From NCBI RefSeq assembly GCF_000739065.1, contig NZ_CP009149.1:248001-312000 (forward strand): a DNA stretch of 64,000 nucleotides. Direction: 5' to 3'. Origin of the DNA: Methanocaldococcus bathoardescens. Lineage in GTDB: Archaea > AGJL01 > Methanococci > Methanococcales > Methanocaldococcaceae. This document shows, piece after piece, positions 31,850-40,929 of this stretch. The notes under the pieces are model-generated. The model saw only the letters and a list, made by a program, of their open reading frames with translations, searched no databases and was not told the origin of the DNA. Made by a program: the position numbers and the translations under genes. Within the stretch, counting starts at the first letter, position 1, and each line of letters starts with the position of its first letter.

Positions 31850-32953
31850 TTATCTCTTTATAACAATTGTTAAAATATCCTCATCCTCTAATTTATGGTC
31901 TAATCCAACTCTCTGCCCAGGATGTTTTGCAGATTTTCCCCAAACTTGAGCATATCTGAAATTTCTAACGAAATCTTTATGCAGTTTTTCACAAACATCT
32001 TTTACAGTAGCTCCTCTTCTCATAATTAGTGGTTCATCAAAATCTGGCTTTTTCCCTTGTGGTTTTAAATAAATCTTTATAAATCCTAACTTTTCATAGA
32101 TTTTATCTTTCAATAAATCTAAGTTAATTCCTTTATTCCCAGAAACTAAAACATACTCTTTACCAAATTCCTCTAATTTTTGTTTTATATATTTTAGATA
32201 TTCTTCATCAGCTAAATCTATCTTATTCACAACCACTAAAGATGGAATATAAACTCTATTTCCTGCCACAACATCAATAAATTGTTCTAATGTTATATCC
32301 TCCCTTATAACAACATCTGCGTTGTGTATTCTATATTCATTTAATATTGCTTCAATTGTATCTTCATCTATGTGGGTTAATGGAACGGTTGAGCTAACAT
32401 CAATCCCTCCTCTATCTTTAACTTTAATTTTAACATCTGGTGGCCTTTGGTCTAACCTAATCCCAACATTGTAAAGCTCTTTTTCAATAACTGGAAGGTG
32501 TTCTAAGGTGTAAATATCTACAGTTAATAAAATCAAATCAGCACTTCTTACTGCAGATAAAACCTCAGTCCCTCTACCTTTACCAGAAGACGCCCCAACA
32601 ATAATACCTGGTGCATCTAAAAGCTGAATCTTAGCCCCTTTATGTTCCAAAACTCCAGGAACGATGGTTAAGGTTGTGAAAGCATAAGCTCCAACTTCTG
32701 ATTTAGCATTTGTTAATTTATTTAGCAAGGTGGATTTTCCAACAGATGGGAATCCAACAAAAGCTGCAGTAGCATCTCCGCTCTTCTTTACAGCATAACC
32801 TTTTCCTCCTCCACCTCCCCCTCTACTTTGAGCCTGCTCTCTCAATTTAGCTAATTTAGCCTTTAACCTACCAATGTGTTTCTGTGTAGCTTTGTTATAT
32901 GGTGTCTTTTTTAATTCCTCTTCTATCCTTCTAATTTCTTCTTCAATTCCCAT
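31850..32953 (-). CDS. Drg/Obg-related GTPase
   Basis: 367-residue GTP-binding protein of the DRG subfamily, which acts in translation or ribosome-associated processes. G1 is GFPSVGKSTLLN, G3 DAPGI, G4 NKIDLAD; an N-terminal helical part (IEEEIRRIEEELKKTPYNKAT) and a C-terminal TGS domain are present. GGTGATGC precedes ATG 32953. It ends 25 nt before the map start, consistent with an operon. Confidence 0.92.
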   Translation of the reverse strand: MGIEEEIRRIEEELKKTPYNKATQKHIGRLKAKLAKLREQAQSRGGGGGGKGYAVKKSGDATAAFVGFPSVGKSTLLNKLTNAKSEVGAYAFTTLTIVPGVLEHKGAKIQLLDAPGIIVGASSGKGRGTEVLSAVRSADLILLTVDIYTLEHLPVIEKELYNVGIRLDQRPPDVKIKVKDRGGIDVSSTVPLTHIDEDTIEAILNEYRIHNADVVIREDITLEQFIDVVAGNRVYIPSLVVVNKIDLADEEYLKYIKQKLEEFGKEYVLVSGNKGINLDLLKDKIYEKLGFIKIYLKPQGKKPDFDEPLIMRRGATVKDVCEKLHKDFVRNFRYAQVWGKSAKHPGQRVGLDHKLEDEDILTIVIKR

Positions 32954-33105
32954 AGCATCACCAATAATATTAAAATTTATGAATTTGTAAAAATAAAACT
33001 TCTATAATGATTAACAAAATAGGCATTTATAATTTTACCATGCATTTTCTTATAAATTGCGTTTGATATTTTAAAAAGTTCAAAAAGAAAAAAAGAATTT
33101 ATTAT

Positions 33106-33261
33106 AGTTATAATTCATCAACTACTATAGAGCGACTACGCTCCCTCTATTGGTATACCCCATTTTTAAAGTAGAGTTTGGACATTAATTGGGGCTGAAA
33201 GCCCCAACTTAATGGACGTGGGGTATACCAATAGGGGCTTTGCCCCTATGGTTATAATTCA
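33106..33261. repeat. Inverted-repeat element inserted at the arsR stop, flanked by a duplicated gene end
   Basis: GTTATAATTCATCAACTA at 33109-33126 is repeated at 33249-33266, where it is the last codons and stop of the arsR gene. Between the copies lies an element with 16-bp ends CTATTGGTATACCCCA (33147-33162) and its complement (33219-33234), a central hairpin around TTGGGGCTGAAAGCCCCAA (33189-33207), and outer hairpins (AGGGGC-TTT-GCCCCT). A repeat of the gene end on both sides is what an insertion with target duplication would leave. Confidence 0.72.
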
Positions 33262-33521
33262 TCAACTAACTTGATAATTTCCTTAACTCTGTCATCAACT
33301 ATGTAGTAGAAGTTCCATGTTCCTTCTTTTCTTGCTTTAACAATTCCTGCTTTCTTTAAAATGTTTAAGTGGTGAGAGATTGTTGGTTGTGGCTTTTTTA
33401 ATTCATCTATTATCTTACAAACACACATACTTCCATTCTCAGCTAATAACTTTAAAATCATCAATCTTGTTGGGTCTCCAAATGCTTTAAATATCTCTGC
33501 TGCTTTTTCGTACTTCTCCAT
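33252..33521 (-). CDS. ArsR/SmtB-family transcriptional regulator
   Basis: Winged-helix repressor, 89 residues. The helix-turn-helix is LKKPQPTISHHLNILKKAGI; MCVCKI in the preceding helix is like the ELCVCDL metal (As/Cd/Pb) site, so a soft metal or thiol-reactive signal is plausible. ATG 33521 follows GTGAGGGAT. An inserted element begins right after its stop. Confidence 0.9.
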   Translation of the reverse strand: MEKYEKAAEIFKAFGDPTRLMILKLLAENGSMCVCKIIDELKKPQPTISHHLNILKKAGIVKARKEGTWNFYYIVDDRVKEIIKLVDEL

Positions 33522-33669
33522 GCTATCCCTCACATACTTATTGTATATTTTTATTTATTTGTTAAAAAGTTTATAAATATAGTTGAGTTTATATTCTTTC
33601 ATGTTGATGTTTAAATTGTAGCCAACTTTACTATAATACATTACTCGTATTTAAATATTTTGGTTTTGT

Positions 33670-34374
33670 CTATTTTATCTTAGAAACGTCAATCACAACC
33701 TTAATAGTCTTTGGATTATCAACACCTTTTAATGACTCAACCATTGCTTTAATTGTGTTACCAACAATCTTGGAGACAAAAGGAACAGCAGGGATTATTT
33801 TACCATCAACAATTATTTTTATACCTTTCGCTAATACACAATCATCCCACTTAGCCTCTCCCTTAACAACTGCCTTAACAAATGTTTTACAGTTATATCC
33901 GCAGTGCTTACAGTTTAAGTTCATTGTTGGAACTGTTGCTTTTTCATAAATAATTTTTAATACTTCATCAATGTTGTAGTTGTAATCTTCAATTACCATT
34001 GCTGTGTGGTCATCAATCAAATCACTTCCATCTTTATTTTTAAGCATAACTATCTTAGGAATATTTAATCTCTTTAAGGCTTCTTTAAAACCTTCTATTA
34101 TAACAAAATCTATATCATAATCGGATAACTCTGCTAAAATATTTTCTAAATCCATTCTATCTGTAAAGAATACTGTTTTGCTATCAGTTGCTAAGACAGT
34201 TACTTTAGCTCCTGCATTTGATAATCTGTAAGTATCGGTTCCTTCTCTATCTACTTCTACATCTTCTCCTGCATGTTTAATAACAGCTATTTTTTTATCA
34301 GAATGCTTTAAGATTTCTTCAATTAGTGTTGTTTTACCAGAATCTTTATAGCCTATAACGCCTATAACTCTCAT
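33670..34374 (-). CDS. mobB: MobB-like molybdopterin-guanine dinucleotide protein with C-terminal Cys motif
   Basis: Nucleotide-binding protein that assists attachment of GMP to molybdopterin. Walker A GYKDSGKTTLI and DREGTDTYRLSNAGA fit MobB; the last 80 residues are an added domain with CKHCGYNCKTFVKAV near residue 165, probably a metal or Fe-S site. ATG 34374 follows GGTGGT. Such MobB with extra domain is seen in methanogens; formate dehydrogenase and formylmethanofuran dehydrogenase would use the cofactor. Confidence 0.85.
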   Translation of the reverse strand: MRVIGVIGYKDSGKTTLIEEILKHSDKKIAVIKHAGEDVEVDREGTDTYRLSNAGAKVTVLATDSKTVFFTDRMDLENILAELSDYDIDFVIIEGFKEALKRLNIPKIVMLKNKDGSDLIDDHTAMVIEDYNYNIDEVLKIIYEKATVPTMNLNCKHCGYNCKTFVKAVVKGEAKWDDCVLAKGIKIIVDGKIIPAVPFVSKIVGNTIKAMVESLKGVDNPKTIKVVIDVSKIK

Positions 34375-39037: not shown

Positions 39038-39040
39038 TTC

Positions 39041-39080
39041 CATAGGGGGCTACGCCCCCCTCTATTGGGATACTTCCCTA
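39041..39080. repeat. Single end of the CTATTGG-type inverted-repeat element
   Basis: CATAGGGGGCTACGCCCCCC followed by TCTATTGGGATAC closely matches the outer hairpin and end of the element at 33106-33261 (GGGGC hairpin plus CTATTGGTATAC). Only one end is present, right after the PIN gene stop; it may now act as a transcription terminator between that gene and the CRISPR array. Confidence 0.5.
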
Positions 39081-39106: not shown

Positions 39107-40529
39107 GTTTTTACACCGTAACGGTCTGATTTTAACTTATAAAGTTTTGTGGGAAGCTAAAAGTCAAACATATGTTTCCATACCGAAACGGTCTGATTTT
39201 AACTATTGTTTATTTCTTCAGTTGCAGGGGAATCAATCTTAGATATGAAGTATAGTTTCCATGCCGAAACGGTCTGATTTTAACAGGACTGGATAAGTCA
39301 TGCCGTAGAGAGGCCAGGAGCACTAGTTTCCATACCAAAACGGTCTGATTTTAACTACTACATATATGTAAATTGGTGATAAAATGGCTGATGTAAGTTT
39401 CCATACCGAAACGGTCTGATTTTAACGCCGTTTAATTCTCTTACCGCCTCACACCCTCCCTTGCAATAGTTTCCATACCAAAACGGTCTGATTTTAACAA
39501 CTTCTATAGGAATAGTTATTTTACAGTATAATTCATCGTTTCCATACCGTAACGGTCTGATTTTAACTTATAAAATGAAAATAAAAGGCAGTATTGGAAT
39601 GATTGAGTTTCCATACCAAAACGGTCTGATTTTAACTTGCATACATTGCTAAAAAATATCTGTAGGTGAAACTAGTTTCCATACCGTAACGGTCTGATTT
39701 TAACTATCACTTGTTGGTTACCGTAAAACTAAATGAGTTTCCATACCGTAACGGTCTGATTTTAACGATGCAATAACTTCATTAGCCCCACCTGTATTAA
39801 ATACGGAGCATTTGTTTCCATACCGTAACGGTCTGATTTTAACCAAATTCCCAACTAACACCGAAAACTATCTCCCTATGTTTCCATACCGTAACGGTCT
39901 GATTTTAACATCCCTTTAGATTCTCAATTCTGTAGGCAGTTAGAAGTTTCCATACCGTAACGGTCTGATTTTAACTTAATCTTAAAAGTGGTGGAATAGG
40001 AGCTGGTGGTGGGGCGTTTCCATACCGTAACGGTCTGATTTTAACCATTAACTGATAATAATACAATTGATAGATTAAAAAGTTTCCATACCGTAACGGT
40101 CTGATTTTAACAAAATAGATGAAAATACTTCAATTGTTATTGATTTATGGTTTCCATACCGTAACGGTCTGATTTTAACTTTAAGTTTTGTTATTGTTTC
40201 GTAAATTTTAAATAATTCTTGGTTTCCATACCGTAACGGTCTGATTTTAACAAGATTGACGAATATCAACACCTTCAGAAAAAAGAATATTTAGAGTTTC
40301 CATACCGTAACGGTCTGATTTTAACTTTTGATGTTTCTGGAGTTTATTCACATAATTGTGTTTCCATACCGTAACGGTCTGATTTTAACCAATGTAGAAT
40401 TTGATATTACTAATATTTGGGATATATCTTAGTTTCCATACCGTAACGGTCTGATTTTAACAATTTTAATGTATCTTTTACTGCTGGTGGCATATCCTTG
40501 TTTCCATACCGAAACGGTCTGATTTTAAC
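39107..40529. CRISPR. CRISPR array, 21 repeats of 30 bp, 20 spacers
   Basis: The repeat begins GTTTCCATACCG and ends GGTCTGATTTTAAC on the + strand. Spacers run from 32 to 51 bp, mostly 34-44. The first repeat (39107) is degenerate (GTTTTTACACC) and several leftward repeats carry GAAACGG or AAAACGG in place of GTAACGG, whereas repeats 9 to 20 are uniform. Degenerate copies mark the old end, so I infer transcription on the minus strand from a leader on the right; this gives processed ends like ATGGAAAC. No cas genes lie in the window. Confidence 0.97.
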
Positions 40530-40929
40530 AGGGCATTATTTTGCTCATTTTGTATGTTATCTCTTCTAATATTTAAGCTTTTTCATACCATAATTTTCGA
40601 AGGGTAGATAACCCCTTTTATTTATAAACCTTCGAAGTTTTTGATTTGATTTTATTTTCTAATTTTCTATCTTAAAAAGTTTTAAAATTTTAAAAATGCA
40701 AATATTTATTGGGGAAATTTTGATTTAAAAATAATTATTTAAAATCTTTTAAAAATCTCTATAATTTAATAAATCTAAATAAATAAAATTATCAAAATAA
40801 GCTACCCTTAGAAATTCTCTAAAAATTCTTAAAATTAAAAAATAAGTTTTTAAAAAGCTTTAAATTGAAAATAAAAGAATTTCCACGAGATAAATGTCAT
40901 TTAAATATTTAAATATAAATTGAAGTATA
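40530..40929 (-). promoter_or_regulatory. Probable CRISPR leader
   Basis: About 400 bases with no gene, extremely AT-rich with long runs of A and T, directly beside the last repeat, and opposite the degenerate end. It includes a partial repeat-like TTTTTCATACCATAA near 40580 and a GAAGGTTTATAAATA-like TATA element on the minus strand near 40615-40635. This fits the leader and promoter of the array. Confidence 0.6.

What the first reader, a model, noticed from the sequence alone, without database searches (positions are those of the whole stretch)
33106..33266. Element inserted at the arsR stop with duplication of the gene end
An 18-bp block (GTTATAATTCATCAACTA) that holds the last codons and stop of arsR occurs on both sides of a roughly 120-bp hairpin element with 16-bp inverted ends (CTATTGGTATACCCCA). 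This is what a target-site duplication looks like, and it lets an insertion occur without harming the protein.
Basis: partly seen in the sequence, partly recalled or inferred. Interest (0 to 1): 0.62.

Follow-up and report, generated by a model that had tools for sequence, protein, structure and literature searches.

The report
Hairpin elements that copy gene ends
Small hairpin-shaped DNA elements scattered through the genomes of heat-loving methane-making archaea often sit at the ends of genes between two copies of that gene end, so that they can land there without breaking the gene, and in many cases the two copies look like versions of the gene end from two different strains.

Summary
In detail: a 127-bp hairpin element (33125-33251) sits between two identical 17-nt copies (18 with the preceding G) of the arsR end. 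Eight of ten same-genus relatives with an alignable arsR end have one copy and no element there.

It belongs to a family. Its end hairpin (CCAATAG-stem-CTATGG) occurs 49 times in this genome and 52 times in a relative of M. jannaschii size (reversed-pattern control 1 and 0); 22 genomes of the sister family show control level (33 against 35). In 61 of 101 a duplicate of the flanking sequence starts within 6 nt of the hairpin: 12-70 bp, median 33; 39 are gene 3' ends, others start codons and tRNA 3' ends.

A plain target-site duplication does not explain all of it. The two copies differ mainly at third codon positions (33/536, 26/536, 104/532), and displaced copies match empty-site orthologs as well as attached ones do. 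They look like two alleles of the gene end, as in fungal mitochondrial mobile elements that bring their own gene end. The repeats are probably the palindromic elements published for M. jannaschii in 2005 (paper not held). The searches listed no report of the gene-end duplications but cover open-licence papers only. The mobilising enzyme is unknown.

The parts
33108..33124 (.). displaced (left) copy of the arsR end, TTATAATTCATCAACTA
   Evidence: 17/17 identical to the right copy
33125..33251 (.). hairpin element, 127 bp, no ORF of 60 aa or more inside it
   Evidence: fold of 33122-33254 z -7.1 (RNA) and -8.35 (DNA); absent at this gene end in 8 of 10 relatives
33125..33153 (-). left end hairpin (CTATAG-stem-CTATTGG), counterpart of the right end hairpin with another stem sequence
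   Evidence: by eye; the same CCATAG-stem-CTATTGG layout in other two-ended copies
33144..33162 (+). left arm of the inverted repeat
   Evidence: 19 nt, 95% complementary
33180..33218 (+). core hairpin module 'A' (GGACATTAATT-GGGGCTGAAAGCCCC-AACTTAATGGACG)
   Evidence: recurs alone or with other modules in the genome
33219..33237 (+). right arm of the inverted repeat
33228..33251 (+). right end hairpin CCAATAGGGGCTTTGCCCCTATGG; family signature
   Evidence: 49 and 52 exact pattern matches; inner stem pairs 351/372 over the 101, maximum of 200 shuffles 0.892
33252..33268 (.). gene-side (right) copy: the real end of arsR, beginning at the stop codon
33252..33533 (-). arsR-type regulator gene, 93 aa
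   Evidence: ORF; the name arsR is from the finding, no family search was run
39040..39068 (-). second end hairpin of the same family in the window, at the end of a CRISPR array
   Evidence: (G000:287040-287068)

Best explanation
This is one copy of a mobile, non-coding, modular palindromic element family of the genus Methanocaldococcus. When a copy enters a gene end it leaves two versions of that end: one attached to the gene, which stays intact, and one displaced to the far side of the element. SHOWN: dispersal, empty sites in relatives, the long variable gene-end duplication, its association with the element, and the third-codon-position pattern. INFERRED: the element reaches a locus, or spreads between strains at that locus, by recombination that carries a short stretch of the donor strain's gene end with it and pushes the resident end aside. 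That would make the two copies two alleles. It works like the fungal mitochondrial mobile elements that bring their own gene terminus. UNKNOWN: the enzyme, and how the first insertion at a new gene happens; a long staggered cut is possible for that step.
For: Element-specific duplication: 64 of 101 end hairpins score 12 or more for a flanking duplicate against 5% of 2020 permuted pairings. In 61 of 101 the duplicate starts within 6 nt of CTATGG (three elements are counted from both ends; G008 473944 and 1297310 look like module matches rather than gene ends). At ten gene ends in eight genomes (70 places with a match), 19 of 21 places with a called end hairpin have the duplicate, against 5 of 49 without; three of those five carry an element that my filter did not call (s2 G008, s6 G000, and s11 G007, whose element lacks the standard end hairpin) (read). 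Clean empty sites: s3 in G000, G001, G006, G009; s4 in G000, G001, G006, G007, G009. Two-allele signature: 51 copies beside an ORF of 90 aa or more differ at positions 1/2/3 by 33/536, 26/536, 104/532; at most 58.6 third-position differences are expected from identical copies with one decaying freely (Poisson P 5e-8). Attached vs displaced 21/492 (pos 1+2) and 57/245 (pos 3); attached vs empty ortholog 29/492 and 75/245; displaced vs empty ortholog 28/492 and 65/245 (21 carrier copies). At s6 a 33-nt block at the gene end is identical in G000 and G008 and differs at one position in G007, while the gene body before it differs by 9-18%; the displaced copy in G000 resembles the G001 gene end.
Against: The displaced copy is not clearly the resident allele: over the 21 rows it is closer to the nearest empty ortholog at third positions in 12, further in 6 and equal in 3 (my count; not significant). 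Several duplicates are 100% identical (G008 459270, 35 bp; 1258276, 21 bp; 37478, 20 bp; the window's 17 bp), as a fresh ordinary duplication would be. The lower divergence of the gene block among carriers (block/body 0.77 in 32 pairs, against 1.20 in 96 mixed and 1.10 in 85 non-carrier pairs) rests on non-independent pairs and on carrier labels that I set by hand; some places labelled non-carrier hold another hairpin module (for example s3 G012, s8 G006, s1 G009), and at s6 the non-carrier G006 shares the block too. Copies at one site in related genomes, and the elements counted from both ends, are not independent, so the P value is too small. 40 of 101 hairpins show no adjacent duplicate (12 of these are followed by a further hairpin module).
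Confidence: 0.5

Rival explanations
1. Ordinary transposition with a long, variable target-site duplication: an unknown transposase or endonuclease makes cuts 15-60 bp apart, the gaps are filled, and the two initially identical copies then diverge. Homologous recombination between strains later shuffles the alleles around the element.
For: Duplicates abut the constant right end; lengths 12-70, median 33; some are 100% identical; the window pair is 17/17. Long variable direct repeats (8-514 bp) are reported for IS1549/IS1634 (PMC2266710, passages), and 3-26 bp for the palindromic YPAL element (PMC2229807, passages).
Against: Third-position excess (104 observed, at most 58.6 expected) and no extra decay of displaced copies, unless later strain-to-strain recombination is added. 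No facing pair of end hairpins enclosing a transposase was seen in the lists for G000 and G008; the one long facing pair in G000 that I opened encloses a CRISPR array. DDE transposase families were not searched.
Confidence: 0.32
2. Replication template switching: a stalled fork copies a hairpin from elsewhere and returns to the template upstream of where it left, duplicating a stretch of any length.
For: Variable length; interchangeable modules; tandem units of hairpin plus gene-end copy at s9 in G004.
Against: Returning downstream should give deletions as often as duplications, which I did not measure. It does not predict the constant CTATGG junction or the third-position excess.
Confidence: 0.1
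3. RNA-guided homing: the hairpins act as an RNA scaffold whose following sequence (the right copy) guides a TnpB-type nuclease to cut empty alleles, which are then repaired from the filled copy.
For: Constant hairpin end next to a gene-matching stretch; displaced copies stay matched to empty alleles; TnpB-type zinc-ribbon genes (PF07282) in 11 of 14 genomes of the genus (10 over the cut-off), none in G002 and G011, which have few or no element ends.
Against: None found in element-rich G007 (89% complete). No RNA data. IS607 elements make no target duplication (PMC6188088, start of abstract in the listing); for IS605 this is recalled. The window element does not reach the gathering score of any Rfam family.
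Confidence: 0.05
4. The blocks are unrelated conserved regulatory sites and the hairpin is a terminator.
For: Many copies lie downstream of stop codons (39 gene 3' ends of 61).
Against: Each duplicate is specific to its own gene (permutation control) and is nearly always missing where the element is missing. It also occurs at start codons, tRNA 3' ends and, at G000 320161, next to a CRISPR-like repeat.
Confidence: 0.02

Closest known systems
Palindromic repetitive elements of M. jannaschii (Suyama, Lathe and Bork 2005, FEBS Lett; group names MJRE1-3 and contents recalled)
   Same: Same genus; palindromic repeats, some fused into protein genes (citing sentences in PMC2229807 and PMC2996958). 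I infer that it is the same family.
   Different: I could not read the paper, so I cannot say whether gene-end duplications were noted; the abstract as I recall it does not mention them.
Fungal mitochondrial mobile-ORF gene hybrids (Allomyces atp6; Glomus atp6, atp9, cox2, nad3; PMC3630166, passages)
   Same: Duplicated gene 3' end; the element-borne end is attached to the gene in phase and the native end lies beyond the element; for atp6 the passages report DNA differences from the relative that are all synonymous.
   Different: Those elements encode a homing endonuclease; these are non-coding hairpins, sit at dozens of genes, and occur at start codons and tRNA genes too.
YPAL / RU-2 palindromic element of Yersinia (PMC2229807, passages)
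   Same: Non-coding palindromic mobile element with target duplications of variable length (3-26 bp) and filled/empty sites.
   Different: Bacterial, different sequence; shorter duplications; no gene-end swap in the passages read.
IS1634 / IS1549 insertion sequences (PMC2266710, passages)
   Same: Long, variable-length direct repeats on insertion.
   Different: 1.5-2 kb elements encoding a transposase; no such partner was seen for this family, though DDE families were not searched.
REP/REPIN sequences with RAYT (Y1) transposases (definition recalled)
   Same: Short dispersed imperfect palindromes.
   Different: No Y1 transposase found in this genome or G008.

Membership tests
M. jannaschii palindromic elements (MJRE) | dispersed palindromic repeats in the M. 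jannaschii genome | tested here: met
   52 end hairpins in G008, whose chromosome length 1,664,970 matches M. jannaschii as I recall it
M. jannaschii palindromic elements (MJRE) | sequence identity to the published MJRE consensus | not testable with these tools
   paper not held
MITE | terminal inverted repeats | tested here: met
   19-nt arms, 95% in the window copy; many other copies have only the right end hairpin
MITE | short target-site duplication of fixed length | tested here: not met
   12-70 bp, median 33, in 61 of 101
MITE | autonomous partner with the same ends | tested here: inconclusive
   none seen among facing end-hairpin pairs listed for G000 and G008; other genomes not examined for this
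REP/RAYT | Y1 transposase in the genome | tested here: not met
   PF01797 in 2 of 14 genomes of the genus, not in G000 or G008
SINE-like retroelement | reverse transcriptase to supply target-primed copying | tested here: not met
   PF00078 in 0 of 14 genomes; 3 of 14 control genomes positive
IS1634-type insertion | DDE transposase of the IS4/IS1634 kind | not tested
   no DDE family search was run
Homing element carrying its own gene end (fungal mORF type) | duplicated gene end with mostly synonymous divergence | tested here: met
   third-position excess, (codon positions counted, not synonymous sites as such)
Homing element carrying its own gene end (fungal mORF type) | endonuclease gene within the element | tested here: not met
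   no ORF of 60 aa or more within 33125-33251
TnpB-guided homing | transcript of the end hairpin joined to the guide-like flank | not testable with these tools
   no RNA data
known Rfam RNA family | match at gathering score | tested here: not met
   window 32900-33700: one match far below its gathering score (21 against 47 bits); four further loci: only CRISPR repeats

The most novel reading that the evidence does not exclude
A genus-wide selfish hairpin system that spreads between strains by homing into gene ends. Each copy carries a short alternative version of the gene terminus that keeps the gene working, and leaves the resident terminus as a displaced piece that may also serve as the recognition or guide sequence for re-targeting empty alleles. 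This would be an archaeal, protein-free counterpart of fungal gene-end-swapping elements, driven in trans by a host or TnpB-like nuclease.
Probability: 0.15. Interest if true: 0.85.

Novelty: new variant of a known kind. Interest (0 to 1): 0.62.

Why it matters
Small palindromic repeats are common in prokaryote genomes, and how they move without breaking genes is mostly unknown. Here a family carries its own record: most insertions are bracketed by a copy of the gene end, of no fixed length, and the two copies often look like different alleles. If the gene-end-swap reading is right, these elements spread between strains by recombination and change gene termini as they go, a route to new C- and N-termini that annotation pipelines would not flag. 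Filled and empty sites in many related genomes make the idea directly testable.

Tried and rejected
Rejected: chance repeat (permutation control). Regulatory duplicate (empty sites). Known RNA family. Retroelement (no reverse transcriptase). REP/RAYT. Virus-borne element: 25 IMG/VR stretches match the end pattern, but most of their inner stems pair poorly, so I take them as chance. Autonomous partner bounded by facing end hairpins: the one long facing pair that I opened in G000 (160513 / 161452) brackets a CRISPR array, not a transposase. The first alignment of arsR ends mixed strands and was discarded; one search printed L029-L042 and then stopped with an error, so L043-L047 (other family) were not read there. 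Codon-position counts used short ORFs and were replaced. The hairpin filter in the window scan missed the copy at 39040; it came.

Not done: DDE transposase families; systematic count of target deletions; element-by-element work in the genomes other than G000 and G008 (ten gene ends only, in six further genomes); RNA data; the 2005 paper itself.

Full report
CHECK. The 17-nt block TTATAATTCATCAACTA occurs at 33108-33124 and 33252-33268, on either side of a 127-bp hairpin element. The right copy is the real end of arsR and starts on its stop codon. The stretch 33122-33254 folds far better than shuffles (z -7.1 RNA, -8.35 DNA; 0 of 200 shuffles as good). The RNA minimum-energy fold closes the two ends on each other around three arms; the DNA fold leaves the outermost bases open.

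EMPTY SITES. Of the twelve same-genus relatives searched, ten gave an alignable arsR end. Eight have a single end and no element there, G008 has an element at the same right junction with an altered left side, and G007 has both blocks around a 20-nt remnant.

FAMILY. The right end hairpin, as the pattern CCAATAG-N(3-24)-CTATGG, occurs 49 times in this genome (reversed-pattern control 1) and 52 times in G008 (control 0). Among the 14 genomes of the genus counts run from 0 to 52, with 0 to 4 in G002, G003 and G011; the 22 genomes of the other family of the order give 33 matches in all against 35 for the control (summed). Stem sequences differ between copies but stay paired: 351 of 372 inner pairs, against a shuffled mean of 0.86 and a maximum of 0.89 in 200 shuffles. 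The 5' part of the element is one of several interchangeable hairpin modules.

DUPLICATIONS. Directly after CTATGG often lies a copy of the sequence before the element. Scores of 12 or more occur in 64 of 101 hairpins, against 5% of 2020 permuted pairings. Of the 40 others, 12 are followed by a further hairpin module. With ORFs of 90 aa or more, 39 of the 61 are gene 3' ends, 12 are gene 5' ends and 10 are unassigned. At four elements (G008 97396, 873651, 1150341; G000 1531302) a predicted tRNA gene has its 3' end at the element (ARAGORN labels the first one 'Stop').

FILLED AND EMPTY SITES AT TEN GENE ENDS. Ten gene ends, chosen because G000 or G008 has a duplicate there, were followed through eight genomes (70 of 80 places found). 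Some are filled only in G008: s4 (empty in the five others found) and s3 (empty in four of five; G012 holds another hairpin module downstream). At s9 six genomes are filled at the same gene end; in five of them the displaced copy starts at the same place by eye, yet the core modules differ, and G004 holds two elements in tandem with gene-end copies (its contig ends there). Where an end hairpin was called, 19 of 21 have the duplicate; where none was called, 5 of 49, three of which carry an element that the filter did not call.

TWO ALLELES. If both copies start identical and the displaced one decays freely, differences should be nearly even over codon positions, with at most a doubling at position 3. 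Observed over 51 copies: 33/536, 26/536, 104/532; at most 58.6 expected at position 3; Poisson P 5e-8, too small because some copies are not independent. Position 3 exceeds positions 1+2 in 27 copies, is below in 11 and ties in 13. At the ten sites (21 carrier copies) the displaced copy is as close to the nearest empty ortholog (28/492 at positions 1+2, 65/245 at 3) as the attached one is (29/492, 75/245), and the two differ from each other like orthologs (21/492, 57/245). Polarised by the majority of orthologs, changes assigned to the displaced copy are 8/9/35 and to the attached copy 8/1/23 at positions 1/2/3, with 4/1/6 unresolved. Site s6 shows it plainly: a 33-nt block at the gene end is the same in G000, G006 and G008 and one base different in G007, while the displaced copy in G000 resembles the gene end of G001. 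I therefore favour an event, or a later spread between strains, that brings a donor gene end together with the element and displaces the resident end.

CAUTION. The direction (which copy is foreign) is not settled: in the rows the displaced copy is nearer the ortholog in 12, further in 6 and equal in 3. Block sharing among carriers (ratio 0.77 against 1.20 and 1.10) is suggestive only, with hand-set labels and non-independent pairs. Fully identical pairs exist. A plain long duplication followed by recombination between strains would give the same end state. At the window locus itself the copies are identical and decide nothing.

ENZYME. No reverse transcriptase (0 of 14 genomes); Y1 transposase in 2 of 14 and not here; TnpB-type genes in 11 of 14 (10 over the cut-off) but not in element-rich G007, which is 89% complete. 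No autonomous copy was seen in the lists for G000 and G008. DDE families were not searched.

LITERATURE. Palindromic repeats of M. jannaschii were published in 2005 (Suyama et al.; seen only as a reference and in citing sentences in PMC2229807 and PMC2996958; paper not held). Nine searches showed, in the rows listed (titles and abstract starts, long lists cut), nothing on gene-end duplications in this genus; they cover open-licence papers only. Closest analogues: fungal mitochondrial gene hybrids (PMC3630166, passages), YPAL (PMC2229807, passages), IS1634/IS1549 (PMC2266710, passages). The RepRanger paper lists M. bathoardescens and M. vulcanius as genomes with REP counts (PMC12306157, passages).

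Noticed in passing
window 39040-39068 and 39107-40540: A second end hairpin of the same family lies at the end of a CRISPR array of about 21 repeats. Elsewhere in this genome (G000 160513-161474) two end hairpins bracket another CRISPR array, and at G000 320161 the displaced copy resembles the CRISPR repeat itself.
   Followed up: partly
L010, L011, L014, L028 (G000) and G008 453062, 726333: A smaller palindromic insert (TAACCAATTATCAAAG ... CTTTGATAATTGGTTA) sits at the same spot of core module A in several copies, as if the composite was propagated; a second insert (CAGGACTTTCACAG ... CTGTGAAAGTCCTG) occurs in other copies, such as G008 1045850.
   Followed up: no
G008 97396, 873651, 1150341; G000 1531302: In four insertions at tRNA 3' ends (tRNA genes predicted) the displaced tRNA fragment carries the same G-to-A change near the element (GAAC to AAAC), next to a hairpin module that starts GAAC or GAAA.
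   Followed up: partly
G006, eight places: A uniform end-hairpin subtype (CCAATAGGGCGTGAGTCCTATGG) suggests a recent expansion in that species.
   Followed up: no
L033 (G007) and L031 (G001), start of the gene next to arsR (counterpart of window ORF 31850-32953): Another copy of the element sits at the start of this neighbouring gene (GTPase-like by recall, no family search); in G007 it is flanked by two copies of the gene start.
   Followed up: partly
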